NCBI GenBank assembly: GCA_018902385.1
Contig: JABSSW010000004.1
Span: forward strand, 248,001 to 312,000
Reading direction: 5' to 3'
DNA length: 64,000 nt
Origin: Physcia stellaris
Lineage: Eukaryota > Ascomycota > Lecanoromycetes > Caliciales > Physciaceae
A model generated the notes under the pieces. That model had not been told where the DNA came from and ran no database searches. It saw only the letters and a program-made list of their open reading frames with translations. The translations under genes and the position numbers were made by a program. Shown here one piece after another: positions 557 to 62,325 of the stretch. Each line of letters begins with the position of its first letter. Position 1 is the first letter of the stretch.

Positions 557-2784
557 ATGACTGGCAAGCCCAGGGTCATATATTGGTTTAGGACTGATCT
601 TCGCTTGCACGATTCGCCCGCGCTCAAAGCCGCATTAGATCTCAAGCCAGAATGTCTATATCCAGTATGGTGCTGGGATCCACATTATGTCTACCGCGCA
701 AGGGTAGGACCTAACCGATGGCAGTATCTGTGAGCGCAAGATTTTTCCATAGGCGGCCTCTGCTAATTGGTACATTCATCCAGACTTGATTGCCAATCCG
801 ATCTTTCGAAATCAATAACGAAGCTCAATTCCAAATCCAAGCTCTTCGTTGTCCGGGAAGCACCGCAGACGGTTCTGCCGAAGCTCTTCAACGCATGGAA
901 GATATCACATCTAGTCTTCGAGAAAGACACGGACGCTTATGCTCGAGAAAGAGACGAGAAGGTCATGGAGCTGGCGAGAGAGGCTGGTGTGAAGGTCATT
1001 GTCAAAATGGGAAGGACGTTGTATGATCCAGACGAGCTGGTAAAGGCCAATGGAGGAAAGCCCACAATGAGCATTACCCAGGTGGAACATGTACGACGGC
1101 CCATATCTAGGCGTCAGTTGGTCCTACTGACTTTATCTAGGCGGCGAAGAAGCTTGGTGATATACCACGCCCTATTCCAGCCCCTAAATCACTGCCCGAC
1201 CCTGGTGACACCACACTTGACATCCCGCAAGAGCGCCCCTCCCAAGAACCAGACATCAATGCGCCCCAACGCTCCGAGCCCGAAACCTCCTACACCAACC
1301 TCGCCGGTCCAGATGGCACATTCTCCGTCCCAACCTTCTCAGAACTCGGCCTCAAACCCGCCACCACCCCCCACCGCGGCGGCGAAACCCTCGCCCTCTC
1401 AACCCTCGACTCCATAATCGCCAACGAAAGCTACACAGCAACATTCTCCAAACCATCTACCGCACCCACAGCCTTCTCCCCACAATCCACAACCCTCCTC
1501 TCCCCCACCACCACTTCGGCTCCCTCTCCGTCCGCCTCCTCTACTGGCGCGCGCACGACACCATGGAAGCCTACCGCCGCAAAGGCAAACAACCCTCCAC
1601 GATCCCCACCAACCTCCTCGGCCAACTGCTCTTCCGAGACATGTATTTCGGCGCCCAAGCCGCCCTGGGCTACTCCTTCGCGCAAACAGTCGGCAACTCG
1701 CACTGCAGATTCGTGCCCTGGCACCTCCCCTCCACCACCTCCCCCACCAACGGCTTCATCACAGGCAAGTACACCATCACCTCCGCCTTGCACGAAACCT
1801 GGTACCAGCGCTGGAAATACGGCCGCACGGGCTTCCCCTGGATCGACGCCCTGATGCGACAGCTGCGCCGCGAAGGCTGGATCCACCACCTCGGCCGACA
1901 CGCCGTGGCCTGCTTCCTGACGCGGGGCGGCTGCTACATCGACTGGGAGCGCGGGGCGGAGGTCTTCGAGGAGTGGCTCCTGGACCACGAGACGGCGTGC
2001 AACAGCGGCAACTGGCAGTGGCTCGCCTGCGTCGCCTTCTACGCCCAGTTCTACCGCTGCTACAGCCCCGTCGCGTTCCCGAAGAAGACGGACAAGAGCG
2101 GCGCGTTCGTGAGGAGGTATGTTCCTGAATTGGCGCGCTTTCCGGAGAAGTTCATCTATGAGCCGTGGAGGGCGCCGATTGCGGATCAGAAGGCGGCGGG
2201 GTGTTTGGTTAAGGGTGATGGGAGGGGTGAGGGGGAGCTTTGATGGTGAGTTGGGGGAGGGAGGGGGCGGGGGCGGGGGCGGGGGAGCGGGCGGGCGGGG
2301 CGGGGGTGGGAAAGGAGAGGGAGGCATGAAAATCTACCCGAAACCGATGTTTGATTTCAATGCGCGGAGGGGCATCTGTATCGAAGGCGTCAAGAGCGCG
2401 TATCACGTCAACCTGTACGGGGACGATGAGAAGGTCAAGGATGGCTCTTGGCGCGAGCTCTTCCCTGATGGGGCTGAGGGGCCGACGGAGGGGGTGGGGG
2501 TGGGTGGTGGGCTGGTACAAGGGGAGGATGGTGGTGGGCTGGTACAAGGGGCGGATGGTGTCGGGGAAAAAGAGAAACTAGAAGAAGGTGCCTTGAACGA
2601 CGAGGGCGCTCCACCCGACAAAAGCAACAAAAAGCGCGATCTCGGCCTCGATGAAGACGAACGCGAAGCCCGAGCGCTGGGCGGCGAGACCAAGGGCGGG
2701 GATCGGAGCGCGGGGAAGAGGAAGAGGCAGGGGACTTTGGATGGGGCTTTTGCGAGGAGGGGGAAGAGGGGGAAGAAGATGTAG
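557..2784 (+). CDS. (6-4) photolyase / animal-type cryptochrome-like flavoprotein, with one frame break
   Basis: A FAD protein that repairs UV (6-4) photoproducts with light energy, or a related photoreceptor. Exons as I read them are 557-729, 784-1090, 1141-2226 and 2324-2784. The N-terminus has the photolyase alpha/beta opening (VIYWFRTDLRLHDSPAL). The FAD-binding half follows (TGFPWIDALMRQLR, GWIHHLGRH, NSGNWQW, FIYEPWRAP). The paired histidines in GWIHHLGRH are the signature of (6-4) enzymes. The last exon restores the family ending PMFDFNARRGIC. It then adds a tail of about 100 residues with a GGGLVQG duplication and a basic end (KRKRQGTLDGAF) that looks like a nuclear signal plus a PCNA-type motif. 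Frame is lost by one base at the C run 1502-1506, between TTLLSP and HHHFGSLSVR. With one base added the exons give 675 codons. Introns 1 and 2 are 54 and 50 bp. The last (2227-2323) is G-rich and less certain. Confidence 0.85.
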
Positions 2785-3294
2785 CGTAGATGGTTGGGCG
2801 GGATGTTCGAGGATTTTGTAGATAGGAACTTGGATCAGAACTATTCGGTGCGATTGGATGAATATAGTAGAATACAATTTGTAGGATCAATTCGGCATTT
2901 CGAAACGGCTTTGTGAAGCACAGATGGGGCTCAATTTGCGGGAGAAACCATTCTAGTAGATTGACGACAGCAAACCAGAGAGGAGAGAACAGAGAACAGT
3001 TGTCCAGATCGCTTCCATTCGAATCTGCTACCACACTAAGCTAAGTATTCATCCACTCATCTGCAATTAAGTATCCGGCACGTAATATCCATCAGTGATC
3101 CACTCGCCACCGCATCAAGCCATTAATACTAAAGTGTGTCAGAGACAAGTAAGCAGAAAAAGGTTGCATTCCACAAATCCAAGCCCAGCTCACGTTTGAT
3201 CTATGTGAAGCAACAGAAGTCTCGAGGAAAAGAACCGTGCGATGGAGCAAATTCTTCACAACCTCTGAGCTCTTCCATCAACGCCCATGGATCA
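2785..3294. other. Convergent intergenic region
   Basis: Lies between the 3' ends of the photolyase gene (+) and the hydrolase gene (-). I see no gene here, only presumed 3' untranslated sequence of both. Confidence 0.5.
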
Positions 3295-4858
3295 TCAACG
3301 AGGGTCGAGCTTTTGCTGTTTGAGGAAATCCAGCATCACATGGTAAAACGCGGTAGTATTGCGATGCAGATTCATCGCGTGGCCCATGTTCGGCTGGATG
3401 TAGGCTTCGAAGGCCGCTGCTTTCGGGAAGGACCCCTTGGCCCCAGCCGGAACCGATGGGAGGTCGGCGGTCGCGCCAGCTAGACAGTCGCCACCGCAAT
3501 AAATCACGTCTTCGTCTAGACAGGAATTCAGTTGGCGGTTTTAGAATGTCAAGTTGGAGACATGAAAGGAGTGACCTACTACCAGTGATGACTAGGACAG
3601 GACCTTTGAATTCCGGTGCCGTGGCAGGCAAACTACCTAACGTGAGAAACTCCCCAATGGTAGCGGGCATCTTGTGCGCTTCGGAGTACTCGAGCGCGGC
3701 GAGGTCGCTGCCGGCCGGAGCGAAGAAAATCTATCGAGACTTCATGTCAGCATTCACCTACGTGAAAGGATAACAAGCCGACTACTGACGTATTTATTTG
3801 CTTGGATATTGGACCAGGTAACGTATCCATCTGGCAGATTTTCCATATTTGGCTCGGTTGTCCGACCAGAGCTGGCATTGCCGAATCTAGCAGGCTGATT
3901 CAGACTAGCTAGCTCGAGATTCAAGCCAGCAACTGCTGCGCTGGCCCATTTCCCGTTGAACGAGATGCCTGTCATGATGATGCCGTCACTGGCCGCTGGA
4001 TCTGCAGCGACGAGTTCGTATGTAAGAGCCGAGCCGAAAGAATGACCTATTAATTATCAAAATTAGTATGAGTAACAAAGACCCAATTGAAGGCAATCGC
4101 TCTATGAATGCAAGCTGAGGAAGGCCTGCAGTAAGAGCTTCACTCTGTTGCCTACAGGGCAACTACGCAAACTATAATTCCCCCTAATTTCATACATAGT
4201 CGTTCTTGTTGTGGACCAAACAGGGCATTTGATTGTACTTACCAACGTGGACGACCTTATCGAAGCGATAGGGAACGGAGGGAACCGTCCCATCCCGTAG
4301 CATCCTAGTGATTCCCTGAATAGTAGCCATAGTTACCGGTGCTTGAACGACGCGCAGAGGATCGGAAACAGTAGAATTCCCAATGCCAAAACGGTCAATA
4401 GCAAGGGTGCAGAACCTATAGTCGCGAACGGCAGCATCAACGTAGCTATTCTTGAAATTGTCGTACGGTAAATCCCAGTATCTACCTTTGCCGTCAGCGC
4501 ATTTGGATGGATGACGCGCCCAGATAATTGAATCAACTTACGTCTTATCGTAACCAATACCATGAGTGAGAAACTGGACGACGGGTTTCTTTGGCATTGT
4601 CTTTGGAGCACAGAAGACCGCACTGATGTGGGCCGTTCCGACCACCGTGGCATACCCAGCAAGCGACGTGTTAGTGAAATTGCCCGAGGCGCTGGTAAGA
4701 TTAAGAACAAATCGGGTCACGTCGAAGTTATTATGCGGGATAGAAACGCTGAAGATGCCATTTCGTGCATGGATATCAACAGGAATGGTGATACTGGTGC
4801 AACGCTTGGATGCGACAGCATTGAAGAGCGCGAAGACGACTAGAATCAGCTTGTACAT
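3295..4858 (-). CDS. Secreted alpha/beta-hydrolase (lipase/esterase-like)
   Basis: Predicted extracellular serine hydrolase of 393 residues. Minus-strand exons are 4858-4542, 4481-4243, 4046-3790, 3730-3583 and 3515-3295, all joined by GT-AG introns in frame. The chosen start gives a clean signal peptide (MYKLILVVFALFNAVAS). An upstream in-frame ATG exists but would bury it. The oxyanion-hole region reads FLTHGIGYDKTYWDLPYDN. The nucleophile elbow GHSFGS spans the second intron. The acid is probably in DEDVIYCGGDC and the catalytic histidine in NMGHAMN near the C-terminus. Several N-x-S/T sites (NLTS, NFTN, NTS) fit a secreted glycoprotein. The substrate cannot be told from sequence. The large intron (4047-4242, 196 bp) is unusually long for this window. 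Confidence 0.8.
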
Positions 4859-6063
4859 ATTGAAGGTTGTCCAAGGCAAAGAAGAGAACCGCGATAACGA
4901 CTCGGATGATGTTGGCTGTCGGCGCCTTCTGTTGGTGTAGTCCGGTGGGGGAAATAGAAAGAAAAATGGAGGAAAAATGGAGATGAAAAGATGTGACAAA
5001 TACTCAGGGCGATATTGATGCCATGACGATAGGTAGTGTTCCAGGCTAATTTTACTGAGGAATAACCGAGTGGAGTCAACACAGAATGACGAGCCCTGCC
5101 GCCTCTTAGCTGATTCTCAGCTGCAGAGCCACCACTGGTGTTACTGCTGTATGGATGCAAAAAATTTAGAATCTTTCCATACTTGACCTGGGACAATATC
5201 TCAAGGCTGCTTGCCCCAGACACGAAACCACCAGTAGCGAGCTGACATTTGCAGACAACATGCGTCGCCGCCTGATATCTGATCCGGAGTGCAGAGCGCT
5301 GGACATAGATACAGTATTGAGAGAGTGGACCGTCCTGCTGCTGCTGGCGAATTGGCGACAACGGTTTTTAGTTTTCGGGAAGACCTTTCGCAACATCTTT
5401 GGCAGAAAGATGTCTTTTTCTTAAATTGACATTGAGTATTACGATTGAAATAAATTGAAGATTTAACGCTTCTGAAAGCAGATGAGTTCCAATGAATATT
5501 TCGTGGATTTGGTTTCTTGAGGTTATCAGAAGCCCATGAGCCAGCGGTCATGCTACTGTTTGAGGTGTAAAAGGTCTACCAATGGAGGTTCAAGTTTGGA
5601 AATTTGAATGGCTGACCTACCGTCTCCTAGGCAATTTACAGCTTAAACGCGCAACAAGCACATTGAGAAACCAGTCATAGCAGGTATGGATTTGGTTGCT
5701 GCTCTCATTAGCGTCAGCGATACGCATCAGTCCGGATGGTCCTACTTACCAGTACCTAAAGCTTCCGATTACCATAGACGTCTGGACTAGTGGCCACAGA
5801 ACCTTTCGACCTTGGAGAGATAAAGGGAAACACTTCCTGATATTGGGAGAGCAACACTTGAGGTTGACACACCAGAGCAGATATCTGCACCTTTGGGTCG
5901 GACCCGGACCGCGAGGCTCTCAATGTTCCAATCTTCTCTAACCACGAGCCACCTGGACTTCCGGAGAAATCAACTTCTTGACGGAAACGGAGACGTCATT
6001 CGGAATTTGGTGGTTATTGCAAGTTGACCATATCGTACCCAATCTTGATCGAACACTATCTGG
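4859..6063. other. Gene-poor region upstream of the hydrolase
   Basis: No coding sequence that I can support. Open stretches here have no start context, splice support or family motif. The part next to 4858 is the presumed hydrolase promoter. Confidence 0.4.
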
Positions 6064-26618: not shown

Positions 26619-27318
26619 AAGCAGTCATGGGCGACTTTAGCCGCCAGCAGACCTGGATTGTATGAGCCTTGGGGTAACATGAGCGTCTAACAGCAGGGCC
26701 AATAAGGCAGGGCCGCGTGCATTGCGCGAGGAGTCCTTGGAGTATTTCGCTAGCACCGAACAGTAGCTGGCATTGGGCATGCATTATAGACGAGTTTAAC
26801 AAAAATTTGCATGAAGTTCAGATATTATGTTGCACGGTTGATCGAGGATATGGAGTTTTCCAGTTACAACGAGGCAGCTTTCCCAGAGTGAATCCTTCTC
26901 CGAATCAACTGAGCGCTGAACAATGTACGACTCCCCAAAACCATGCCTGATTGCTGCTTCATCCAGTAGAAGGTATCAATCCGACTCAGTCGAGCATTGA
27001 GGTAAGACCAATACTTTGGAAGAGCCAAGTTAGCGCGAGGAGACCTTCGACATTGGAAAAGGCACATGAAATAGAATCATTTCATTCTCCTACACTTGAA
27101 CAGGATGAGTATTGCTCGCTTTGAGATGAACCTTGGAGCAGACGAAAAGGATGAGAGTAGGTGGGTTTTAAATGCAGTGAGGAGAAATGGCCGAGGGGCA
27201 CCTTGGAGGTCTAGATCTCCTGCTACGTCAACGGCCAAGAGCAGAGCCTCGGCAGATTGGGCGACTCGAAGGTCCGGACTGTCCTGCGACCAGCTCTTAG
27301 GTACTCAAGGAGCAGATC
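26619..27318. other. Intergenic between TPR-DnaJ gene and Zn2Cys6 regulator
   Basis: 700 bp with no supported gene. The right part is the presumed promoter and leader of the regulator. Confidence 0.4.
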
Positions 27319-30300
27319 ATGGCTTCGTCCGATTCTGGATTCCCATCTCAGGCCGAGTCTCAAATGTACGAGGCCGCCCAGAGTATGTTGGAGCACTCGA
27401 GAGTGCCGCGACCCGCTCTTCCTTCTAGCCTCAATGGCTACGGTCTACCTGAGAATCACCTCGCGCAGCTACAACCCCAGTCTGATTCAGTTGCTCTCGT
27501 ACCCATCTCTCCATATCCCAATGTCAGCTTACCTTTTCAAAACAGTGCGCCCCAACGGAATCAAGACTATGCCTCAACTATCGATGGTGTACTACATTCA
27601 CCGCAAAACCACGGGTCTTCTGATTATCGTTCTCGAAAACTTCCCACCTCCGAGCATTTAGACGGCGGAGGGCATGATCCTAATGCTAGACAACATAGGC
27701 TAAGCGACCCGAGTCGCGGAGGCTATGCATTTGGCAATCACAGTGGGAGTGTAGACGGTTCGGAGCCAAACAGCCCAACGAGTTCACGAGGTCGTACAGC
27801 GCATAGCTCAGAGGTCGGTGCGCCATACAAGCACCGCAGCAGTCATGACGAGCTACGTGAGGATGGTGGGGGTAAAAAAGAGCAGAAGTCCCCAGCTTGG
27901 AAAGAGATGAAGACAAAAGCAGGCAAAGACCGTAAAAGGTTACCACTAGCATGCATCGCTTGCAGAAGGAAGAAAATACGCTGCTCTGGAGAGAAGCCTG
28001 CTTGTAAACACTGTCTGCGATCGCGGATACCCTGTGTCTACAAGGTAACGGCACGGAAGGCTGCGCCTAGGACGGATTATATGGCCATGCTTGACAAACG
28101 ACTTAAACGCATGGAGGATCGGGTCATCAAGATCATTCCCAAGGATGAAAAAGACGAAGCTTCGGCCATCCCGAGAGCAGTCGTCAAACCTCCTCATCCG
28201 GGGACTAATCCCAAGAGCAGTACTGGTAAGAAAAGAGCTGCATGTGAAGCCTTTGGCCTAGATGGGAACGATTGGGCAGAAAGCAAAATAAGTGCACCGC
28301 CTCTTACGGCGGACACAAGCTACAATGAAAAGCTGAATGAGGGTATCGAGAAATTACCATCAAAAGAAATCCAAGAGCATTTATCCGAGGTCTTCTTTGA
28401 CTGCCTATACGGCCAATCATATCACCTTTTACATAAGCCTAGTTATATCAGACGATTACGGCAAGTACCAGGATATGATCGTCTGAGATTCCGCTTAGCT
28501 GACAGGAGCATAGTGCGGGTAAAGTTCCTCCAGTACTTGTTTTGGCAGTTTGTGCGATCTCTGCCCGCTTCTCGACTCATCCAGAGCTGGGGTCGGAGCC
28601 AGCATTCCTCCGTGGGGAGGAGTGGGCTAGTCCGGCCCGAGAAATCGCTCTGAAACGCTACGACGAGCCAAGTATGACAACCCTCACTGTATTTTTAATT
28701 CTTGGTTTACATGAGTTTGGTACCTGCCATGGTGGCCGGAGCTGGATGTTTGGTGGTATGGCTTTACGCATGGCCTATGCATTACAATTGCATCGTGAAC
28801 TAAAATATGACCCTTCAATTCAGACAGATGGCAAGAACACTGAGTTGAGCTGTACTGACCGTGAGATTCGACGACGTACAATGTGGGCTTGTTTCCAGAT
28901 GGATCGCTTCAACTCGTCAGGCACTGAACGACCCGCTTCCGCAAATGAAGAGAATATTAAAATACAGCTTCCAATCAAAGAAAAGTATTTCCAGATGGAC
29001 ATCCCAGGACCAACCGAATTCTTAGACGGGACTGTGCCAAAGGCCGTCGGCTCCAATGACAGCCAAGCCAATGATAACCAGGCCGCAATTGCCAAAGAGA
29101 ACATGGGAGTAGCCGCGTACCTGGTACGTATAATCGCTCTGTGGGGACGACTCGTCAATTACATCAATCAAGGTGGAAGAGAAAGAGATGGACATCCGTT
29201 TTGGGATCCGAAATCCCAGTTTGCTGAGCTCAGGCAGCAGGTCGAAGGGTTCCGGGAATCACTCCCCCCTTTGTTGCAATATACACAGGAAAATCTCAAA
29301 AAGCATGCCGTTGATCGAGTTGCGAATCAATTCCTTGTCATTCACATTGCTTGCAATCAACTCATGCTCTTTCTTCATCGGTTTGCCATCCCAACCGCTC
29401 CTGGTGGGAAAATACCTGAGAAGACTCCGAAGACTTTCGTGGCAGAAGCTCGAACCATAGCAGTCGAAGCAGCAACAAATATTTCCACCTTACTCGACGA
29501 TGCCTTAGAACATCATGTAACCGCCCCTTTCACAGGGTACTGTGCTTTTCTATCAAGTGTAGTTCACGTTTGGGGCGTCTACTCGAAGAGTGCAACGCTT
29601 GAAGCGTCCTCCAAAGCGAACCTAGCCCGCAACGTCAAGTATTTACAAAAATGAAGAAGCATTGGGGCATGTTCCACTTCATAGCACAAAACCTTAAGGA
29701 AATATTTGCACGTCATACAGAAGCCGCCAAAGGATCTGGGTCTGAATGTGCGATCCAGGATGCTTCCGTGTTCCAGTATGGTGACTGGTTCCAAAAGTAT
29801 CCCCACGGTGTCTCGGAAACAGACTACGAAGATCCGGCATCGACGAAGATCAAACAGGAAACCACAAACAATTCCAGCCTCAGCCAACAATCAGATCTTC
29901 AAAGCGTTGAAGAGTTCTTTCATGCCCTATCATCGCCAGCACGTACCGGCCAACAGCGAACAGCCCCCAAGAAGCGTTCACGTAGCGGCAACCAAGCCGA
30001 ACAAGTTGCACCCTTACAACCTCTCAACCTAATCAGCCAACCCAACCTCGCCAACTCACAGCAACACCCCCAGCCTGACCCCAATCAGCCGATGCTCCCC
30101 CTCTCGGCACCCATAGCCCAAAGCCCCGTCTCCTCATCCCCATATACCCCCCAACATCAACAGCAACAACAAAACCTCTACACCCCAACCCAACCCCTCT
30201 TCCCCCAATCCTACGACATGCTCTCCCTCCCGCCCACCGCCAACACAACCCCGTTCCCCCAACCTCTCGACCGCCACCTGCTCTACGGCGGCTACACAGG

Positions 30301-30613
30301 CGCCGACGCCGTCCCTGTCCCCGTCCTCGGCACCAACCCCAACGACCTAGCCAACTCCGCCGCCGCGCTACAAGATCAAAACCAGATGTGGAGCGCTACC
30401 AGCGCGATGGATCTCCAGCAGCAGATGTTGGCTGCCGGGGCCGGCGGGTACGGTGATGCGGGGTTGGGCGCGTGGTTCATGCCGTTTAATATGGAGCCGC
30501 CGATTCAGATGGGCACGCCGGATTTGGGCGGTGAGGGGGATTTTGGGGGCGGGGGCGGGGGTGGGTTTGTGGCGCAGGTGCAGGGCGATCAGGGGATGCA
30601 GGGGCAGCCTTGA
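27319..30613 (+). CDS. Zn2Cys6 fungal transcription factor with fungal_trans domain, one frame break
   Basis: Exons 27319-28464 and 28506-30613. A disordered N-terminus of about 210 residues leads to the binuclear zinc cluster ACIACRRKKIRCSGEKPACK-HC-LRSRIPC, all six cysteines in place, then a basic linker (DYMAMLDKRLKRMEDRVIK). The middle homology region follows (VLAVCAISARFSTHPEL, MAYALQLHREL, RRRTMWACFQMDRFNS). The C-terminus is Q/N/G-rich and probably activating. The intron is only 41 bp. It joins RRLRQ to EHSAGKVPPVLVL and is needed to keep the domain. A single-base frame break lies at the A run 29647-29651, between NVKYLQK and MKKHWGMFHFIA. With one extra base the family-like block is continuous and the length is 1084 residues. 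No specific target pathway can be named. Confidence 0.85.
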
Positions 30614-51300: not shown

Positions 51301-52497
51301 TTACTTCGACTTCTTCGAAGCCTCCTTCGCTAGGTCTTGGGCCTCGCCAAGCTTCCGCTGCAGTACGGCTTGGATCTCCTCGTACGTGCTCTTCGCAATC
51401 TTTTGCGCATCTTCTCCGTTTTCCTGAGCGATCTGCTGCAGCTGCGATAGTTTCGGGAGGATTTCGCTTCCACCGGGCACCATCTTCAGGTAAGATTCCA
51501 GTCCACCTCCACCGCCTCCAGCTTGCTTAGCCTTATCAGCGGTGCTCTTGATGTATTTTTCAAGATCCTCTGTGCTGCCTGATTGCACAGCGTCTTTTAT
51601 CTTCTCATAAAGCTCCTTGACATTGCCCTTCTTAAGATCGCTAGCGTTCTTCTCAATCAACTCCTTGACCTTGGGAGATTTATCAAGGTACGGTTTCGCT
51701 TGCTCCATACCCTGATCCCAGACCTTATTTCCGAGCTCCTGGATCTTCTTCATCTTGTCTTGGACTAAAGACTGGATTTTGGGTATGCTTGAGGCGCTGA
51801 ATCCTTCCTTCATTATGCCCCGGATCTGATCCCAAGTTTCGTCCACCTGTTTCTTTGCTTCTGGTCCATAATTTTCGCCTAGCTGCTTGAGTTGATCCAA
51901 GTTACCTCCCACTTTCTCTTTCAGAGTCGGGTGGTTATCTATGATCTCCTGGGCCGAATCTCCAGCAAGTTCCCCAAGTTTCTTGAGGTGCTTCTGCAAA
52001 ATCTCCCAGGCTTGCTGTGCCGTTTCAAAGCTCACTCCCTTGTCTGAAACATTCCTGAGATCGTTGTAGGCATCCTTCACAATCTGGTCCACCTCACCCG
52101 AGTGTTTCTGCTGAATGGCGTCGATGTCATTGAAAGCACTGTCGACGTAGGACTTGGCTCCAGGAATGAAGCCAACGTACGAAGTCGCAGTTTGTCGAAA
52201 CCATTGCAGAGCTTCATTGGGTTCTGGTGTTGATTTCTTGAATTGTTCCTTGTATTTGGTGAAGGAAGCAGACGTCTCACGGGCCGTGTTGACCAAGGTT
52301 TTGGCTCCAGAGAAGTGGTAATAGCTGTAACCGCCTAAGAATACTAGACCACCACCGACTAGGCCGCCGACGATGCCTTGACTGACACTGCTGTTCGAGG
52401 CAGCCGAGCTTGACGATTCTGAGCGCAATTGGCGGAGAAAAGGGTTGACGCGTACGTTGCGAGCCGTCCTCGTGACCGCTTTGGAGGAAATCATCAT
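51301..52497 (-). CDS. Mitochondrial-type helical repeat (apolipoprotein-like) protein
   Basis: A single-exon 398-residue protein. The N-terminus is rich in R, S and A without acids (SKAVTRTARNVRVNPFLRQL), a likely mitochondrial presequence. A Gly-rich hydrophobic segment follows (GIVGGLVGGGLVFLGGYSYY). The rest is a long series of amphipathic helices with 11/22-residue periodicity (for example KIQELGNKVWDQGMEQAKPY and LYEKIKDAVQSGSTEDLEKY), interrupted by a GGGGGG linker. The layout, one inner-membrane anchor and extended helices, resembles fungal proteins of uncertain function related in style to MICOS or apolipoprotein-like factors. No catalytic motif. Two adjacent ATGs (MMIS) are both possible starts. 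Confidence 0.65.
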   Translation of the reverse strand: MMISSKAVTRTARNVRVNPFLRQLRSESSSSAASNSSVSQGIVGGLVGGGLVFLGGYSYYHFSGAKTLVNTARETSASFTKYKEQFKKSTPEPNEALQWFRQTATSYVGFIPGAKSYVDSAFNDIDAIQQKHSGEVDQIVKDAYNDLRNVSDKGVSFETAQQAWEILQKHLKKLGELAGDSAQEIIDNHPTLKEKVGGNLDQLKQLGENYGPEAKKQVDETWDQIRGIMKEGFSASSIPKIQSLVQDKMKKIQELGNKVWDQGMEQAKPYLDKSPKVKELIEKNASDLKKGNVKELYEKIKDAVQSGSTEDLEKYIKSTADKAKQAGGGGGGLESYLKMVPGGSEILPKLSQLQQIAQENGEDAQKIAKSTYEEIQAVLQRKLGEAQDLAKEASKKSK

Positions 52498-53038
52498 GAC
52501 TTTTCTTCTAGGGTAAATTCACTGAAGTACAGCAGGGGTAGTCGTGGACCAAAAGTTTCTGTAAAGGATCGACCTTGGACCGGGCAGAAATTCACATGTC
52601 TCGGGACCTTGCAGTGGCCCGAGTGGTACGTCATTGGCAAGATCGCGGGGTAAAATGCTTCTTCAGCTGAAACACAGTCAATTCAAATGATTTCGAAGTT
52701 GCGACTGAGTGGTTCAAGTCATTCACCTGGGAATGGAAAATCTGAAGCAGTGATGTTATCATCTTGACTTGATCTACCCAATTGAAAATCCCCCCTTTGA
52801 ATTGGCAGGCCAAACTGGATTCCTCCCCAATTGGACTATGTAGAATGAATTGATCGGGCAAATCGACGAAACGTTTATGTCTTCTAACCTTCGAACATAA
52901 AGTGCGTGATTTGACGTTGCAATTTTGTGCAAAGAACACAGTCCGTGGCTGTCGCCACTTCCCGTTATCTTGTTGTTACTCACGCTTATGCGTGCGGTCA
53001 AGTGATAGAAAAGACGGTTTCTCATCGTTCCATCTTTC
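52498..53038. other. Intergenic between coiled-coil gene and carX
   Basis: Promoter of the coiled-coil gene and 3' flank of carX, both on the minus strand. No other feature seen. Confidence 0.4.
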
Positions 53039-55125
53039 CTAATTCAAGCAAGACTGTATGGCATGTCGGATGCTCAACCACAGTCTCCATGCAGGAGAGG
53101 TCTTCTGCGCCTCTTTCTCCAACGGTGGAACGCTTCTGAATCGTGTTGCTGGCCTCTGGTTTAGGATTTGCTCTTCTGAGAACCAATTGCCATGTAGACC
53201 GTACGGGACTCTTTGCGGCAGATAGACTTTGGCAACAACCTCAGCCATCGTTTTGGCGTCAATGACCCAAAGCTCGCTCCTGGCGCTCTCTAGGCACTCA
53301 CCACCTTGGTCCAGTTGGCTTTCGTCGAAAACGTAGCTTAGAAGCCAGCCATCGTCCTCGCTGCTGCCGTTGGAACGTGGCACGAATCGGGATTCCTGTG
53401 CGTACCAACCAGGAGGCATTTTGAATACCTTGATAGGGTCTTCTGGATCTCGACTGGCGACTATTTCCGACATTTCTCTATTATCTACGCAACCGGTGAT
53501 TTGGTTTGGCGTATTGGATTTGCCCCTTTGAATCAGTGTCTCGACATCGACCTTGACGAGGGAGTCAATCTTAACAGCCCGGCCAAGAGCGGCTCCAAAC
53601 GACGACCCTTCGACAGAACAACCGTACACGTATTTGGCGGCACTCATGGACTGTGCCTCATTCAAGGTTGGAAATTCAAACGAAACCGCGCATAACGCCC
53701 ACTGATTTAAGATGATGTTTGAAACCTCACCAGACCCCGATTTGTTCAGGCTTTGTTCGGAACTTAATTGAAACTCGTAATAGTAGAGGCGGCATTGCTC
53801 CTCTTCCTTTTCGTACTTTGAAGTAGTATCAGTAGGGATAGGAGCAGCTAAGTCACCTGCACTGAAGACAAGTGAGGCAGATGTCAGCCTACAAGCTAAC
53901 ATATTAAGAGTTTCATGTTGCATATTTGATCTAGGGTCTCGATGAGAAGTGTTCCATGAATTGGCGGTGTGAAAGATACAGCAGGGGTTTGTCTCAAACC
54001 AACGAACGTTATTTGGTTGATAACGAGGAAATATACCGAAGCGTGATACGCCGTTTGGATCGTAAGCCACTACTGGTTTGTTCTTCGCCAAATTGAGAGG
54101 GTCCAGCGATAATGGTAAATCCATGATGATGGTGTGGGTACGGGACACCCCGAAATCGTGCATCATTTTTGCCGAATGCATTCCAGCAACAGGCGCATTT
54201 AGAACTTCAGCTCCACCAACACTTAAGGCCCCCGCACATTCTTTCCGGGTTGGAGGGATGACTGAGTACTGAACATAGGGAGGAGCAAATGTTGAGTGAT
54301 AGAGCAAAAGCTCGGATGTTTGAGGGTCGACTCTAGGCTGGTGAAGGTCCGTCAACATCATGTAAAATCAATAATACTTCAGCATTACCTACATGAGCAG
54401 TGGTCCATTCTTTGAAGAAGCTGAGCAGTCCCTCGCCCCCAAATCCAGGTTCCTCGATTATCCCAGCTTCTCCCTCACAGTTCGTACCTGTGTACCAGCC
54501 AATCGTTTCGAGCCCCGGAAGAGCTATACGCATGGGCGGGCCGCTTTCACACGTGGCCAAGGCTCTTCCATCATGATATAGGAATGCGGTGTTCGCAACG
54601 CTGATCCTTTTGATAGCTTGTACGGAGCCAGGTAAGTGGGAAAGTACCACGAGAATGAATGCTCGGAGTATCCGTAAAGTTATAGTAATCAGAGAGCTGA
54701 GCGGATTCACCAAGGTGGTTATACTGGGTAGAATTGGCGTTTTCAACGAAGACGAAGTTATCGAGGCAATGTAGACGTCCGTGAGCACATACTGGTTGAC
54801 GAATTCTGGCCGAACGTTCCCTTCTCACCATGCCGCGAGAATGCGACTCCACTGAGCATACCATCGCCATCGAACCAGTGGGCATCGCGCTCCAGAGACC
54901 CGTTGATAAGCGGATTCCCCCCATTGCGCACATATTGGCCTCCCGCAAGCTCTTCAGGAAGGGTGCCAGAATACTCGCAAGGTGTCAAGGGCTGGACGCG
55001 GTGGATGGGCGCAAAGTTACCCGAGAGATACCTAGATTGAGAGAATCAGTAAGGCAGCCTGAAGACCTTCTGATTCAGGATAGGACTGACGGGTGTGGAC
55101 TATCTCGTGTTTTTCTGCTTGGCAT
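53039..55125 (-). CDS. carX: Carotenoid cleavage oxygenase CarX (retinal-forming), one frame break
   Basis: Non-haem iron dioxygenase that in Fusarium splits beta-carotene into two retinals. Exons are 55125-55091, 55031-54393 and 54337-53039. The start MPSRKTRDSPHPYLSGNFAP fits the family N-terminus. Landmarks are GGQYVRNGGNP, DAHWFDGDGMLSGVAF, NQYVLTDVY, ISVANTAFLYHDGRALATCE and YGLHGNWFS. The four likely iron ligands are visible in TTAHPRV, KMMHDFGVSRTH, CCIFHTANSW and YGLHG. The first intron is 59 bp and the second 55 bp. The frame is lost by one base between GVAFSRHGEKG and EFVNQYVL, near the CCC at 54819-54821 (GGG in the sense strand). One added base gives 657 residues and the same spacing I recall for Fusarium CarX. 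It sits head-to-head with carRA. Similarity to CarX is stronger than to the torulene-cleaving CarT/CAO-2, from memory. Confidence 0.88.
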
Positions 55126-55805
55126 TCTCACTCACCAGCTGGTAGATGTCGTTGGTCGATTGATTAATCCAGTGGGGGACCGATCAAGTGCCGACAATGC
55201 TACATATCAAAACGATTTACGGAGTATTGAGTGCATTATGGACAATTGTTCTGAGGCGCCGGAAGATGCACAACGGATTCACGCCTCTCGATCACTGGAC
55301 TCGACTTGGGTTGACAGCTTGACATGTGATAAAAGACCCGCGCGTGCCGGGTGGAGATAACAAAAATTAATACTCCTTAAATGACGCAGCAGACTGCGGC
55401 TGCATTTCCCCTCATTCGAGATCCAACAGCGAGTGCAGTTCGAGAACGACAGGGGTTCTGCGGGAGCTTTGATCTGCAAAGAGTCTGGTGGCGGTGCTGC
55501 TTTGTGTGAAGGATCCTGCAGCGTACCTATTACGTCGGCCCTGACGGCATCAGAGTAAATTACATACATGAAGCTATCCAAATAGCAACACCACGTGGGG
55601 TCACCTCAATTGCTCTTCCAAGCTCTGTTCTCAGTATTTGTATACTGACACCAATATTTAAAATCTGAATTCCCCCTCGTAACCACAAATTACAGAGATT
55701 TGCCAAGTCGACGCCCCTAATTAGCTTTCCCCGCTTTCCCAGCCAAGTTCTTTTCACCCAGGGACATGCTCCGCAAAGTCTCCTCGTGCTGGTGAAGCTC
55801 AAGCA
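55126..55805. promoter_or_regulatory. Bidirectional promoter between carX and carRA
   Basis: 680 bp between two outward-reading start codons of the same pathway. In relatives these genes are co-induced by light through White Collar and repressed by CarS. Several GATC and CGAT cores occur (for example near 55180 and 55211), which resemble GATA-type sites but are too short to be decisive. Confidence 0.6.
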
Positions 55806-57657
55806 ATGGGATATGAGTATGCGTTGGTGTAAGTCATCGCTCCACATGTAGTTCAATGCTTCTGACAGCTTTGATAGCCACCTACTGTACACGATCCCTC
55901 CAGCCATACTATTATCCGCCTGCTACTACCCACTTGGTACCAGAATCGATGTTTACAAAATCCTTTTTCTGATAACCGTGAGCGACCAAAGTGATCAGAA
56001 GCTTTGACATACTAAAGACCGTCAGATCGCCGTCGTATCAACCACACCTTGGGATTCATATCTCATTCGGGAAAAAATATGGACATACCCCGAGAACGTC
56101 ATTGTTGGACCAACTCTGTTCAAAATTCCGCTGGAAGAGGTCTTCTTCTTCATAATCCAGACATACAACACCTCTCTTCTTTATCTCATCCTTAGCAAGC
56201 CTACATTCCACCCTGTATACCTGCGAGGTCGGAGATTGCTCTACGATGCCAGACGGTTACGGCTGTGGAGGTGGCTCGGGACCTTGGCAATCGTGACTGC
56301 GATATGCATGGGAGCTGTTTTGGTCAAGAGACGTACTGACGGCCTGTATATGGGCCTGATCTTGGTCTGGGCCGGTCCATTCGTTTTGCTCCTCTGGACC
56401 CTGGCGCATCAATTCATCCTGGGGCTTCCTCTATCGAACACATTTGCTCCAATCGTCCTGCCGACTTTTTACCTCTGGATAGTTGACACAGTAGCCTTGC
56501 GACGGGGAACTTGGGTCATTGAAGCGGGTACCAAAGTTGGTATCCAGCTCTGGCATGGTCTAGAAATCGAGGAGGCCCTTTTTTTTCTCCTGACCAATGT
56601 CCTCATTGTTTTTGGGCTCATTGCCTTCGATAATGCTCTGGCCATCCTAGAAAGTTTCCCCTCAATATTTCCAAGGCTTCCGGTACTGCCTTCGCCATGG
56701 CTTCTGATCAAAGCACTCCTCACACCAGTCCAAGCCTACGACGACGACCGCATTGAAGGCTTGCAGCAAGCATTGGCCCGGCTGAGAATGAAAAGCAGGA
56801 GCTTCTATCTTGCGAGCGGCGTATTCTCGGGCCGCTTACGGATCGATCTTATACTGCTTTATTCCTTCTGTCGTGTTGCAGATGACCTTGTCGACGAGGC
56901 TCAGTCACCAGATAAGGCAAGAGACTGGATTGTTAAGCTTGTACGGTACCTCGACATCTCTTATGGCGAAAAGCCCTCCTCAGTGTCTGGGTATGTGCTC
57001 GAGACATTTCCACCTTTTGCTCAACCTGCCTTGCTTCTGTTACCCACTGCGTACCTTACCTCGAAGCCACTTTACGACCTGTTGAAAGGGTTCGAGACGG
57101 ATCTTAATTTTACATCTTCGGACGACCCTTTCCCCATTCGTGATGAAGAAACGTTGATGACCTATGGATCTCGTGTTGCTGGCACTGTGGCAGAGCTGTG
57201 CATACAGCTGGCTTATTATCACGCTTTCGATATCTCTACAACCGATGAGATCCAACGGACAGTCTTTGCCGGAGGCAGAATGGGAATCGCTCTACAATAC
57301 ATCAATATCGCTCGGGACATATCTGTGGACGCCACAAACGCCCGTGTTTACATCCCAACCACGTGGCTCAAAGACCACGGTTCAGGGCCAGAGCACGTAT
57401 TGAAGGATTCTAGCGGCTTACTGGTCGAAACAATGCGGCAGCGCCTACTCGATAGCGCCATGCATATCTATGGCGAATCCAGAGGAGCGATTGATTATTT
57501 ACCTGCCGAAGCGCGAGCTCCAATGCGAGTCGCTGTAGAGAGTTACGTCGAGATAGGGAGGGTACTTCGGAAACCAGGCTACAGAATCAAAGCTGGCAGG
57601 GCAACCGTCCCAAAGCTGAGGAGACTGCGGGTCGCGTGGAGAGCATTGAACATGTAG
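55806..57657 (+). CDS. carRA: Bifunctional lycopene cyclase / phytoene synthase
   Basis: Two-domain enzyme. The N-terminal half is a membrane lycopene/carotene cyclase and the C-terminal half condenses two geranylgeranyl diphosphates to phytoene. Three exons (55806-55828, 55869-55977, 56026-57657) encode 587 residues, close to Fusarium CarRA and Neurospora AL-2. The start MGYEYALV is exactly where the family begins. The first intron is only 40 bp. Cyclase repeats include IAVVSTTPWDSYLIREKIWT and PLEEVFFFIIQTYNTSLLYL, with the second copy at GTWVIEAGTKVG and LEIEEALFFLLTN. The synthase domain has RSFYLASGVF, the first Asp-rich motif in RVADDLVDEAQ, and the second in NIARDISVDATNARVYIP. Synthase active-site acids are intact. 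It is divergent from carX and 377 bp upstream of carB. Confidence 0.95.
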
Positions 57658-58034
57658 AATGGAGCTTTGGACTGGCGTACATAGGGACTGGATGGAAAAC
57701 ATTGCTTAGTCTTTTCATGATACCATTCTGTTGATGGCTGCTCATGCCTGTGGTATAAGTACTGTAAATAAGGGGGAAGTCGATTAATCAGAAAGATATT
57801 GATAAGTGTGTGCACGGTGTGACTCGCCAGCTTACGAGCTTATCAACCATCATGGATAATGCTTACCAATCCCCCGGCCTCATGTCTTCACAACAAAGGA
57901 TTTAGCTGTCTAACCCTAATTCGTGAAGATAAATTCGTCATCGCTCCGTTCACTTTTCGTTCATCTGTGGAGCCTTCAACATAGGTACCTTAATCATGTA
58001 ACAATTTCAAAGACAACTCTTCGCAACTGCGAAT
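57658..58034. promoter_or_regulatory. carRA-carB intergenic region
   Basis: 377 bp holding the carRA 3' end and the carB promoter. No distinct element recognised. Confidence 0.4.
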
Positions 58035-59823
58035 ATGGGGGAGAAGGCAGGTCAGAAGACGGCCATCGTCGTGGGTCAGTATTCTCTTCCCCACTTTCTG
58101 AACGTGCACTGACTGATCATTCGGTAGGTGCCGGCGCTGGAGGAGTCGCTACAGCAGCTCGGCTTGCAAGAGCTGGCTTTCAAGTGACCGTATTCGAGAA
58201 GAATGCCTTTACGGGTGGCCGCTGCTCCCTCATACATCATGAAGGCTACGTGTGTAGGCCACCTCTCCCAACAATTGCCTTGGCTGACCACGGAATCAGC
58301 GCTTTGATCAAGGTCCATCGCTACTTTTACTACCAGGACTTTTCCATGAGGCCTTTGCCGATCTCGGTACTACACTCCTGGCTGAAGGGGTGGAGCTGAT
58401 GAAGTGTGAACCCAACTACAACCTGTGGTTTGGAGATGGCGAATCCTTCGAACTATCTACCGATATCGCCCGGATGAAGACTGAGGTAGAGAAGTGGGAA
58501 GGTAAGGATGGCTTCGAACGATATTTGGGATTCCTGCAGGAAGCACATCGACATTATGAGATCAGTGTTTCTCATGTACTGACCAAAAACTTCACCTCTA
58601 TCCTGTCAATGGCCCGCCCTTCCTTTCTCCGCCATCTGTTCCCATTGCACCCTTTCGAAAGCATATACTCAAGAGCATCAAAGTACTTCTGGACCGAGCG
58701 TTTGCGCCGAGTCTTCACTTTCGGGAGCATGTATATGGGAATGTCTCCTTTTGATGCTCCAGGCACTTACTCGTTACTACAATACACCGAGCTAGCTGAA
58801 GGCATTTGGTACCCTAAAGGCGGGTTTCACAAGGTGATCGAGGCTCTTGTGCAAATTGGCGAACGCTTAGGTGTCACATATAAATTGTCTACACCAGTGG
58901 CCTCCATTCAACTTGACAGCAATCTCAAGCGAGCCATAGGAGTCGTCCTTACAAATGGCCAGACGCTGTCTGCGGATGTGGTCATAGTCAATGCAGATCT
59001 GGTATACGCATACAACAATCTTCTACCCACATCACTGCAGGCCAAATCTCTGAAGAAGAGAATTGCAAGCTGCAGTTCCATATCATTCTACTGGGCAATG
59101 AGTCGAAAGGTACCGGAATTGACGACGCATAACATCTTCCTCGCAGACGACTATCGCGAATCATTCGACAACATATTCAAGAAACAATCGATACCGCGAG
59201 AGCCATCTTTCTACGTCAATGTTCCGTCCAGAATCGATAGCACGGCCGCACCTGAGGGTACTGATGCAATCGTTGTCTTGGTACCCGTCGGCCATATGCT
59301 CGACGAGTCTGAGGGCCAAGGACTGGACATGCACAGCAAGCAGGACTGGGAAGGGATGGTGACTAAAGCACGCGAGACAGTCTTCTCCACGATCGAAAAA
59401 CGCACTGGTGCCAAAGACTTACAGCAAGCGCTTGTGAAGGAGATAAGCAACACGCCTCAAACTTGGAAGGATACCTTCAATCTTGACAAGGGTGCCATCC
59501 TGGGGCTCAGCCACAGCTTCTTCAATGTATTATCCTTCCGACCTTCGACTAAACATCCAACTATCGACAAACTACACTTTGTTGGAGCATCAACACATCC
59601 GGGGACCGGGGTCCCGGTATGTCTTGCGGGCAGCAAGATTACCAGTGAGCAAGTACTTGAGGATTTCGGAATGGCAAAACCCTGGAAAGACACATCGAGG
59701 AGTCAAACTCGGATTGTGAGCGACATCGACCAAGCGCAGGTGTTGCCTCTGCTCTCCAACTTTCATATCGCCATCGTGGTCTTCCTCCTGTTGTTGGCTG
59801 TAACCGTCTATCCGAGGCTTTGA
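58035..59823 (+). CDS. carB: Phytoene desaturase
   Basis: FAD-dependent desaturase that introduces the four to five double bonds turning phytoene into lycopene and further products. Three exons (58035-58074, 58128-58249, 58300-59823) give 561 residues. The Rossmann motif AIVVGAGAGGVATAARLARA is split by intron 1. After it come NAFTGGRCSLIHHEGYRFDQ (split by intron 2) and GPSLLLLPGLFHEAFADLGT. Further CrtI-type blocks are MGMSPFDAPGTYSLLQYTEL, GIWYPKGGFHKVIEALVQIG, and the C-terminal LHFVGASTHPGTGVPVCLAG. A hydrophobic C-terminal segment (IAIVVFLLLLAVTVYP) anchors it in the membrane, as in AL-1/CarB. Intact, no anomaly. It works with CarRA to supply beta-carotene for CarX. Confidence 0.95.
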
Positions 59824-61235
59824 AAGGAATAGGTGAAGGTGTATGGCTATGACAAACAAGGTCGACGTGTAATCCCCTCGCTCTCGAGCTGCAGATGGGA
59901 ATTTTGTAAATGGTCATGTAATTTGCAATACATAGAGCAGTTCCGTGTAGTTTAACTAGGGCTGGCATAGCAATGTGCTCCAATGCATCAATTGCTCTAC
60001 CGCCAACCCTTGGAGAATCCAGTTCATGTCCCTTTCCCCACCATCCCCAAGTTAGACATGACCCTTCAGAGCGATAATTCAAGTTGTTCTTTACTACTAA
60101 GGCAGGACAGCCAGAATCTCATGCAATGACAAAGCGTCCTATATTTCCAGCCTGTCTTTCGAAGGTCACAAGACAAGTTGTCGGCGCGTGATTTTAAGGA
60201 CGGAGCCAACAGCGCGCCGTTCCAGACCAGCCTTAACTATTCTGCCAAGATGCAATGCAATGCTTGATTTGACGACAGCGCAGGCGTCCAATGAAAGACT
60301 CGGCCAGGTTGATCATCCGGTCAAGTTCATGCAATTCGTGCATGATCAGAAAGCAGCGGAAGAGGGGTCTTACTCTTCTCGATCTAGTTGGGAGAGAAAT
60401 TTAAATGAGCTAAGCATCTTGAAATTGCTTCGATTGGCTGCAACGTTCATGTTGATAGAAAGATACCTTGCTGTCTTAGCAGCGAGTGTGTCGAGCTCAT
60501 TTTCTTCTTTCCAGCCTTTCTGCGATGATTTGGTGAGGTACGAGTGACAATGGGCGTCGGGGATAGGTCGGGTCGGTCGGATGGTCCTAGCTTTGTTACA
60601 TCAAGTATGGCATTTGCAAATTCCATGTTGGGAGAGCTCCAGCTCTATCTGGGGTGCAGCGATGATATGATATCATTGGTCGGAACTGTCACACCTTTAA
60701 CGTTTTCCGATCACGCTTGTGACCATCGCGCTAGCAAGCTAGAGCTTGGACTATTCTCCTTCCGCCTTCCAGCTTGCTTCTCTGCTGTCAACGGTAAAGA
60801 CGGGAGTCGCTCCCAAAGTTAATTTTTGAATGACAGGAGAGTGGAAAGTTCCCTTGGTGATGTCACGGACAGCGGTATATCAATATACCCTGCAGCAGAT
60901 AGGAACTTTTGGAGCTTATCATGTACCGGACTTCCACGGGCGATGACATCTGAACATTTTGCCCCAGTCGGAGGGGTCTGTTATCCCCACGCCGTCTTCT
61001 ACCTTATGCAGATTGATTACGAAGAGCAAAGCCTTAGGTGACTGGTAGCGCTAGGGCGACGGCCAGGGAAATGACTGGAATGAGGTGATGTAATCTACTG
61101 CACCACGTCACTCTGCCGACTCAAATACAAACAACCAGTCCGACCTCACCGTCTCCCTCCCATCTAATCCACCTGTGACTCTCCTCAACATCAGAACCGT
61201 CAATACTGAGCAACACATTGCTTCAACTGATCAAG
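59824..61235. other. carB-carO intergenic region
   Basis: 1.4 kb with only short open frames of no recognisable content. Presumed carB terminator and a comparatively long carO promoter. Confidence 0.45.
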
Positions 61236-62325
61236 ATGGGTTTGTTCTCACGAGCAAACGATGCGCTGCTCCATAATCCCTCTACCGTCAACGGAGCTAC
61301 TGCTGATATCACTATCACCACTCATGGCTCCGACTGGTATTGGGTATGTTGGACAGAAATCCTCCTGAGTCTTCAGAAGACTGACTCTTTACAGGCCGTC
61401 TGCGCCGTGATGACCGTTTCCACCTTCGTCTTCATCGGCCTTTCGTTCACCAAGCCTCGTACCCACCGCATCTTCCACTACATCACAGCCTTGATCACCA
61501 TGGTGGCCGCGATCGCCTATTTCACCATGGGCTCCAACCTCGGTTTCACTCCGATTGCAGTCGAGTTCCCTAGGAGCAACCCACGCGTCCACGGCACTTA
61601 CCGCTCGATCTTCTACGTACGCTACATTGACTGGTAGGCCTCTGCTATCCTACCTCGTATCTAGTAAAGCTAATCCAATAATCTAGGGTTATTACCACTC
61701 CCCTGCTACTGTTGGACTTGCTCCTGACTGCGGGTTTGCCATGGCCCACTATTCTCTACACTCTCCTCATTGATGAGATAATGATTATCACTGGATTAGT
61801 CGGCGCCCTTGTCGTGTCTAATTATAAGGTAAGTTCCACGAGACGAGCAACCCTCTTTGTTCTTCAGAATCCGACAACTGACGTATGTCTTTATAGTGGG
61901 GCTATTACGTCTTCGGCAACGCAGCACTCTTCGTCGTCGCATGGACCGTCACCTGGACAGCGCGCAAGCACGCCGCCGCACTTGGCTCCGACGTCTCAAG
62001 GGTCTACCTGATCTGCGGTGTCCTCACCATCTTCCTCTGGTTCCTCTACCCTATCGCGTGGGGTATCTGCGAAGGTGGCAACGTCATCGCGCCGGACTCC
62101 GAGGCTGTCTTCTACGGCATTCTCGACCTCTTCGCTAAGCCAGTCTTCGGCGCCCTTTTGCTTTGGGGTCATCGCAACATTGACCCGGGACGTCTCGGTC
62201 TTCACATCCGTGATTACGATGAGGACCCAGCCATCCATGGCGGTGTCCACTCGGGCGCGTACCGTGAGAAGAATAACCTGTCCGAGCCTGGATCCAATGG
62301 TACCGATGCTGCTCACACTGCCTGA
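61236..62325 (+). CDS. carO: Microbial-type opsin CarO (retinal-binding proton pump type)
   Basis: Seven-helix retinylidene membrane protein. Exons are 61236-61343, 61395-61633, 61687-61828 and 61898-62325, the introns falling cleanly within conserved helices. Helix C reads RYIDWVITTPLLLLDLLLTA. It keeps the Asp in YIDW (counterion, like bacteriorhodopsin D85) and the Asp in LLLDL (proton donor, like D96), the pattern of a light-driven pump rather than a NOP-1-like sensor. Helix G has the retinal Schiff-base lysine in DLFAKPVFGALLLWGHR. Other marks are RVHGTYRSIFYVRY and FLWFLYPIAWGICEGG. The retinal would come from CarX in the same cluster. Intact. Its last residues are hydrophilic (NLSEPGSNGTDAAHTA). 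Confidence 0.95.

What the first reader, a model, noticed from the sequence alone, without database searches (positions are those of the whole stretch)
53039..62325. Complete retinal-opsin carotenoid cluster: carX, carRA, carB, carO
All four genes for making retinal and the opsin that uses it lie together within 9.3 kb, in the order and divergent arrangement known from Fusarium-like fungi. Key residues are intact: the synthase Asp motifs, the four His of CarX, and the opsin lysine and both pump aspartates. This is the most coherent functional system in the window. It is not novel in itself, but its spread in other ascomycete classes is worth recording.
Basis: partly seen in the sequence, partly recalled or inferred. 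Interest (0 to 1): 0.75.

Follow-up and report, generated by a model that had tools for sequence, protein, structure and literature searches.

The report
Known fungal retinal-opsin gene cluster
Four neighbouring fungal genes for making the pigment retinal and a light-driven proton pump that uses it are really here, in an arrangement already described in many fungi; one of them, carX, has a one-base break in its reading frame that is most likely a sequencing error.

Summary
The four genes are there in the stated order: carX on the minus strand, then carRA, carB and carO on the plus strand. CarRA (584 aa), CarB (561 aa) and CarO (305 aa) read cleanly once seven GT-AG introns of 48-68 nt are removed, and their key residues are present. 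The opsin has the residues of a CarO-like proton pump.

'Complete' does not hold for carX as sequenced. Two consecutive pieces match RPE65 profile positions 1-60 and 64-145; they are contiguous in the DNA but in different frames, with no room for an intron of ordinary length. All four histidines lie downstream of the break.

A photolyase-like gene at the other end of the window has the same kind of one-base break in a homopolymer, and a zinc-cluster regulator possibly another. An assembly indel is the best reading; a decayed carX is weaker.

The cluster and its spread across ascomycete classes are published. CarX versus CarT could not be tested by phylogeny. Verdict: an ordinary, known system with a sequence-quality flag on carX.

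The parts
55091..55125 (-). carX exon 1 (inferred; 59-nt intron GTCAGT..CTAG follows)
   Evidence: reading frame and splice sites only; no homology test of this short exon
54393..55031 (-). carX exon 2, holding the one-base frame break at about 54819-54824 and, at its end, the first histidine
   Evidence: piece A (54761-55030) = RPE65 profile 1-60, E 6.1e-15; piece B (54393-54824) = profile 64-145, E 7.3e-13; different frames
53039..54337 (-). carX exon 3 with three histidines and the stop (55-nt intron GTAGGT..CCAG precedes)
   Evidence: RPE65 profile 155-469, E 5.4e-78; residue alignment to plant carotenoid 9,10-dioxygenase 9luz
55126..55805 (.). gap between the divergent starts of carX and carRA, the likely shared promoter region
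   Evidence: gene models; one TCGATC, not enriched
55806..57657 (+). carRA, bifunctional lycopene cyclase/phytoene synthase, 584 aa, exons 55806-55828, 55878-55977, 56026-57657
   Evidence: spliced frame without stop; CarR_dom_SF two stretches; SQS_PSY; DDLVD codon 56881, DISVD codon 57316
58035..59823 (+). carB, phytoene desaturase, 561 aa, exons 58035-58074, 58128-58249, 58300-59823
   Evidence: spliced frame without internal stop; crtI_fam 6.4e-109, above its cut-off
61236..62325 (+). carO, CarO-like rhodopsin, 305 aa, exons 61236-61343, 61395-61633, 61687-61828, 61897-62325
   Evidence: spliced frame without internal stop; 7bmh Leptosphaeria rhodopsin E 1.5e-44; Asp115, Asp126, Glu146, Glu222, Glu232, Asp240, Lys244

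Best explanation
This is an ordinary ascomycete retinal-opsin cluster. CarRA makes phytoene from GGPP and cyclises the desaturated carotene, CarB desaturates phytoene, and together they supply beta-carotene (and probably torulene). CarX cleaves beta-carotene in the middle to give retinal. CarO binds retinal through Lys244 and works as a green-light-driven proton pump, with Asp115 as acceptor and Asp126 as donor. Shown here: gene identities, order, strands, clean frames of three genes, key residues. Inferred from the named families: the reactions, the pumping and the light induction. The frame break in carX is most likely an assembly indel, so the living fungus probably has a working carX; that last step is inference.
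For: Family hits and order; spliced frames; opsin alignment with both pump aspartates and the lysine. CarX pieces cover profile positions 1-60, 64-145 and 155-469 of 469. The oxygenase is far closer to plant carotenoid dioxygenase 9luz (2.3e-34) than to Neurospora CAO-1 (2.2e-8). For the indel reading: a second conserved gene, photolyase-like, has a one-base break at a run of five C, contiguous on solved 6-4 photolyase 3fy4 (chain residues 192-263 then 261-474).
Against: carX does not read through as sequenced. No reads or second copy of this locus were available. Eight of the 11 gene models that I looked at showed no break, so the window is not uniformly error-ridden. GATCGA-type light motifs are not enriched. 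CarX exon 3 reaches only sub-cut-off NCBIfam matches, to bacterial apocarotenoid and lignostilbene dioxygenases.
Confidence: 0.82

Rival explanations
1. carX is a young pseudogene. The fungus keeps carotenoid genes and the opsin but no longer makes its own retinal, perhaps within a wider loss of light biology that also broke the photolyase-like gene.
For: The one-base break in carX is upstream of all four histidines, and the second gene with a homology-supported break is also light-related.
Against: The rest of carX is undamaged over exon 3, the four histidines are kept, carRA, carB and carO are clean, the breaks lie in or beside short homopolymers, and a possible third one is in a gene with no evident light role.
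Confidence: 0.09
2. The break is an extremely short 23-nt intron (GTGAGA..CCAG) that restores the frame.
For: It is the cheapest of 70 frame-restoring candidates of 20-199 nt, costing 9 nt of profile-matched sequence.
Against: The nine introns modelled in this cluster are 48-68 nt, and introns in 226 Fusarium core genes are 42-529 nt (PMC5677156, passages). It would remove residues that match the RPE65 profile. The photolyase-like break has no such candidate: the best of 117 costs 63 nt.
Confidence: 0.03
3. The oxygenase is not a retinal-forming CarX but a torulene cleaver like CarT/CAO-2, so the cluster would make neurosporaxanthin precursors.
For: No fungal CarX or CarT sequence could be compared, so this is untested by phylogeny.
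Against: Its place, divergent from carRA and linked to an opsin gene, is that of carX, while carT is unlinked in Fusarium.
Confidence: 0.04

Closest known systems
Fusarium fujikuroi car cluster (carX-carRA-carB-carO, FFUJ_11801 to FFUJ_11804)
   Same: Same four gene kinds in the same order, with carX divergent from carRA (PMC5715946 passages; locus tags in PMC5561558 passages)
   Different: carX here has a one-base frame break as sequenced; the organism is unidentified and no sequence comparison with Fusarium could be made
Botrytis cinerea cluster bcphs1, bcphd1, bccao1, bop2, and the four-gene cluster of Sclerotinia sclerotiorum
   Same: Same gene kinds; the Botrytis paper says it is organised as in F. 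fujikuroi and is light-induced (PMC3886904 passages; PMC6941272 passages)
Aureobasidium pullulans ApOps1 and ApOps2 (CarO-like rhodopsins)
   Same: Both pump aspartates, the lysine, Glu at the BR-G116 position and a Glu-Glu-Asp release group (PMC8591190 section 13; residues here)
   Different: Sequences not held, so identity was not measured
Leptosphaeria rhodopsin, 7bmh (LR-like pump)
   Same: Best solved relative, E 1.5e-44; both pump aspartates and the lysine align
   Different: It has Leu where this opsin has Glu146, and Asp where this one has Glu222

Membership tests
Ascomycete car (retinal-opsin) cluster | carX, carRA, carB and carO adjacent, carX divergent from carRA | tested here: met
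   Families and positions; the arrangement in Fusarium from PMC5715946
Ascomycete car (retinal-opsin) cluster | all four genes with an open reading frame | tested here: not met
   3 of 4 open; carX broken by one base as sequenced, judged a likely assembly error
Ascomycete car (retinal-opsin) cluster | co-induction by light | not testable with these tools
   no expression data; GATCGA-type motifs not enriched
CarX (retinal-forming oxygenase) | RPE65-family fold with four iron-ligand histidines | tested here: met
   profile positions 1-60, 64-145, 155-469 in separate pieces; three histidines align with 9luz, the first lies at the exon 2 end; that these are the ligands is recalled
CarX (retinal-forming oxygenase) | groups with CarX rather than CarT/CAO-2 in a tree | not testable with these tools
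   no fungal CarX or CarT sequence found in the collections; CAO-1 is distant
CarO-like rhodopsin | retinal lysine and Asp at both acceptor and donor positions | tested here: met
   Lys244, Asp115, Asp126 aligned with 7bmh
CarO-like rhodopsin | Glu at BR-G116 position and Glu-Glu-Asp release group, as in ApOps1/2 | tested here: met
   Glu146, Glu222, Glu232, Asp240 against the residues named in PMC8591190; mapping to BR numbers is by recall of BR, differences from LR by alignment
CarO-like rhodopsin | clusters with CarO in a tree | not testable with these tools
   no CarO-like sequence held
Fungal CarRA/AL-2 fusion | two CarR cyclase repeats fused to a phytoene synthase with both Asp motifs | tested here: met
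   TIGR03462 two stretches, SQS_PSY, DDLVD and DISVD
CrtI/AL-1-type phytoene desaturase (CarB) | crtI family match above cut-off | tested here: met
   TIGR02734 364.9 bits against a cut-off of 238.1

The most novel reading that the evidence does not exclude
The one-base break in carX is real: this fungus keeps an intact light-driven pump gene beside a dead retinal synthase, so its CarO must run on retinal from elsewhere or serve without chromophore, while a photolyase-like gene about 53 kb away has decayed too.
Probability: 0.08. Interest if true: 0.4.

Novelty: already known. Interest (0 to 1): 0.12.

Why it matters
Mainly annotation. A gene caller may well split or truncate carX here, and someone could then report that this fungus cannot make retinal. 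If the break were real, the fungus would be a natural test of whether CarO-type opsins work without their own retinal supply. The spread of the cluster across ascomycete classes is already in print.

Tried and rejected
Own-genome search for further opsins: no genome is held. CarRA against viral contigs, in hope of any fungal comparator: no relative; genome contigs was not scanned, and no scan of metagenome contigs was allowed. Codon-usage frame scan of the whole window for further breaks: too noisy, it also marked antisense and probably non-coding stretches, so I counted nothing from it. Light motifs: one TCGATC in the carX/carRA gap and one upstream of carO, none upstream of carB, against 20 per orientation in 64 kb, so no support. 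Introns across the carX break: of 70 frame-restoring candidates of 20-199 nt, those of 40 nt or more cost at least 33 nt of profile-matched sequence and were rejected; the 23-nt one is kept as a rival. The same enumeration finds the real carO intron 2 at zero cost. A programmed frameshift was set aside because I saw no classical slippery heptamer, judged by eye. The CarX biochemistry paper PMC1865656 is not held. A search for papers holding carotenoid oxygenase, opsin, pseudogene, fungi, retinal and Fusarium together listed 2. I saw passages of PMC5133782, where the one pseudogene passage is about plants; PMC9920419 I saw only in listings. I make no claim that a fungal carX pseudogene is unreported.

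Full report
What is there. The region holds four genes in the order carX (minus), carRA, carB, carO (all plus). A Pfam scan of seven pieces gave RPE65, SQS_PSY, NAD-binding/amine oxidase or Bac_rhodopsin in 6 of the 7; the seventh was a wrong-frame stretch inside carX. NCBIfam gave two CarR lycopene-cyclase stretches in CarRA and crtI_fam above its cut-off in CarB. Of the four proteins in that scan, carX exon 3 reached only matches far below cut-off and the last carO exon none. Spliced models are carRA 584 aa (introns 49 and 48 nt), carB 561 aa (53 and 50 nt) and carO 305 aa (51, 53 and 68 nt), all GT-AG and without internal stop. Chance is no explanation at these E-values.

Key residues. CarRA has both Asp motifs (codons 56881 and 57316) and paired glutamates in each cyclase repeat; CarB has its dinucleotide-binding glycines (the meaning of these motifs is recalled). 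CarO has Lys244, Asp115 and Asp126, aligned with Leptosphaeria rhodopsin 7bmh (E 1.5e-44; coordinates), and Glu146, Glu222, Glu232 and Asp240. For Aureobasidium, the two CarO-like opsins have Glu at the BR-G116 position and two Glu plus one Asp in the release group, whereas the LR-like one has Val there and one Glu plus two Asp (PMC8591190, section 13 read). Leptosphaeria rhodopsin has Leu and Asp in the columns of Glu146 and Glu222. The mapping to BR numbers is mine, by recall of BR. The opsin is best called CarO-like; no tree could be made.

carX. Exon 3 (54337-53039) holds three of the four histidines; the first is the last codon of exon 2 (54395-54393). Exon 1 is inferred at 55125-55091 from frame and splice sites alone. 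Exon 2 does not read through: its first part and its second part lie in different frames. Tested apart, piece A matches RPE65 profile positions 1-60 (its residues 6-70, ending at window 54821), piece B matches 64-145 (from its residue 7, window 54806), and exon 3 matches 155-469. The profile is nearly continuous and the DNA is continuous, but the frame changes by one base near 54824-54819, beside a short G run. As written, that frame meets a stop at 54760-54758, before all four histidines. Of 70 candidate introns of 20-199 nt that would restore the frame, one of 23 nt costs 9 nt of matched sequence and the rest cost 32 nt or more. [quoted passage not shown]

Error or decay. I looked at 11 gene models for like breaks: carX, carRA, carB, carO, a photolyase-like gene, a zinc-cluster regulator, a TPR-DnaJ gene, a kinase, a Kri1 gene, a VASt gene and a Rua1_C gene. 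They come from Pfam scans of 30 further open frames, chosen from the 55 listed at 150 codons or more. Two breaks are supported by homology. One is carX. The other is in the photolyase-like gene at about 557-2784: piece A aligns to 6-4 photolyase 3fy4 up to chain residue 263 and piece B from residue 261, in a different frame, at a run of five C; the cheapest of 117 candidate introns there costs 63 nt. A third, in the zinc-cluster regulator near 29650 at a run of five A, rests on overlapping open frames and on a C-terminal motif that I recall; it was not tested by homology. The other eight showed none. Three of these are spliced models; five were judged by eye from three-frame translations or single open frames, and partly only over parts of the gene. 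Open frames were picked because they are open, so the number of breaks may be understated. One-base breaks at homopolymers in unrelated genes fit residual long-read assembly errors (start of the PMC8812927 abstract in the listing; PMC12007338 abstract). How this window was sequenced is not known to me. I put the assembly indel well ahead of a pseudogene but cannot prove it. Against it: both homology-supported breaks are in light-related genes, which a real loss of light biology would also give.

Identity of the oxygenase. Its best solved relative is a plant carotenoid 9,10-dioxygenase, 9luz (2.3e-34); Neurospora CAO-1 (5u8x; a resveratrol cleaver according to PMC5133782, passages) is distant (2.2e-8). 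CarX against CarT/CAO-2 could not be settled by sequence. Its place is that of carX; carT is unlinked in Fusarium.

Regulation. GATCGA-type motifs are not enriched in the three gaps. Light induction remains an inference from the known clusters.

Known or new. The Fusarium cluster and its logic are described in PMC5715946 (passages). PMC5796164 says that in 8 of the 11 species of its figure 3b the carO counterpart is clustered with orthologues of the car genes, and places CarO-like opsins in Eurotiomycetes, Dothideomycetes, Helotiales and, among Sordariomycetes, Hypocreales and Glomerellales (passages). [quoted passage not shown] PMC5561558 reports it in Zymoseptoria tritici and names Botryotinia fuckeliana, L. 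maculans and C. heterostrophus (passages). PMC3886904 reports light-induced expression of the Botrytis cluster (passages). The organism of this window is not identified.

Verdict. A real, ordinary, known cluster. What a user of this sequence should know is the frame break in carX.

Noticed in passing
557-2784 (+): Photolyase-like gene of the 6-4 photolyase/animal-type cryptochrome group (FAD_binding_7 4.9e-61) with a one-base frame break at a run of five C near 1505-1512, contiguous on 3fy4.
   Followed up: yes
2243-2330 (+): G-rich stretch where the photolyase-like frame ends and its apparent C-terminal part continues in another frame; intron or second break not resolved.
   Followed up: no
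27301-30613 (+): Zn2Cys6 regulator (Zn_clus 3.7e-10, Fungal_trans 1.1e-24) with a possible one-base frame break near 29650 at a run of five A; not tested by homology.
   Followed up: partly
51301-52518 (-): 405-codon open frame just beyond the carX end of the cluster, with no Pfam match at E 0.001; a conserved neighbour could help to identify the organism.
   Followed up: no
59824-61235: The carB-carO gap is 1.4 kb, much longer than the carRA-carB gap, and holds a 148-codon open frame (60101-60547, stop to stop) whose coding status was not tested.
   Followed up: no
3278-5116 (-): Several exon-like pieces with a GHSFGS motif that look like an alpha/beta hydrolase by recall; one piece, 4541-5116, had only a weak sub-cut-off Pfam match to a GPCR family.
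   Followed up: no
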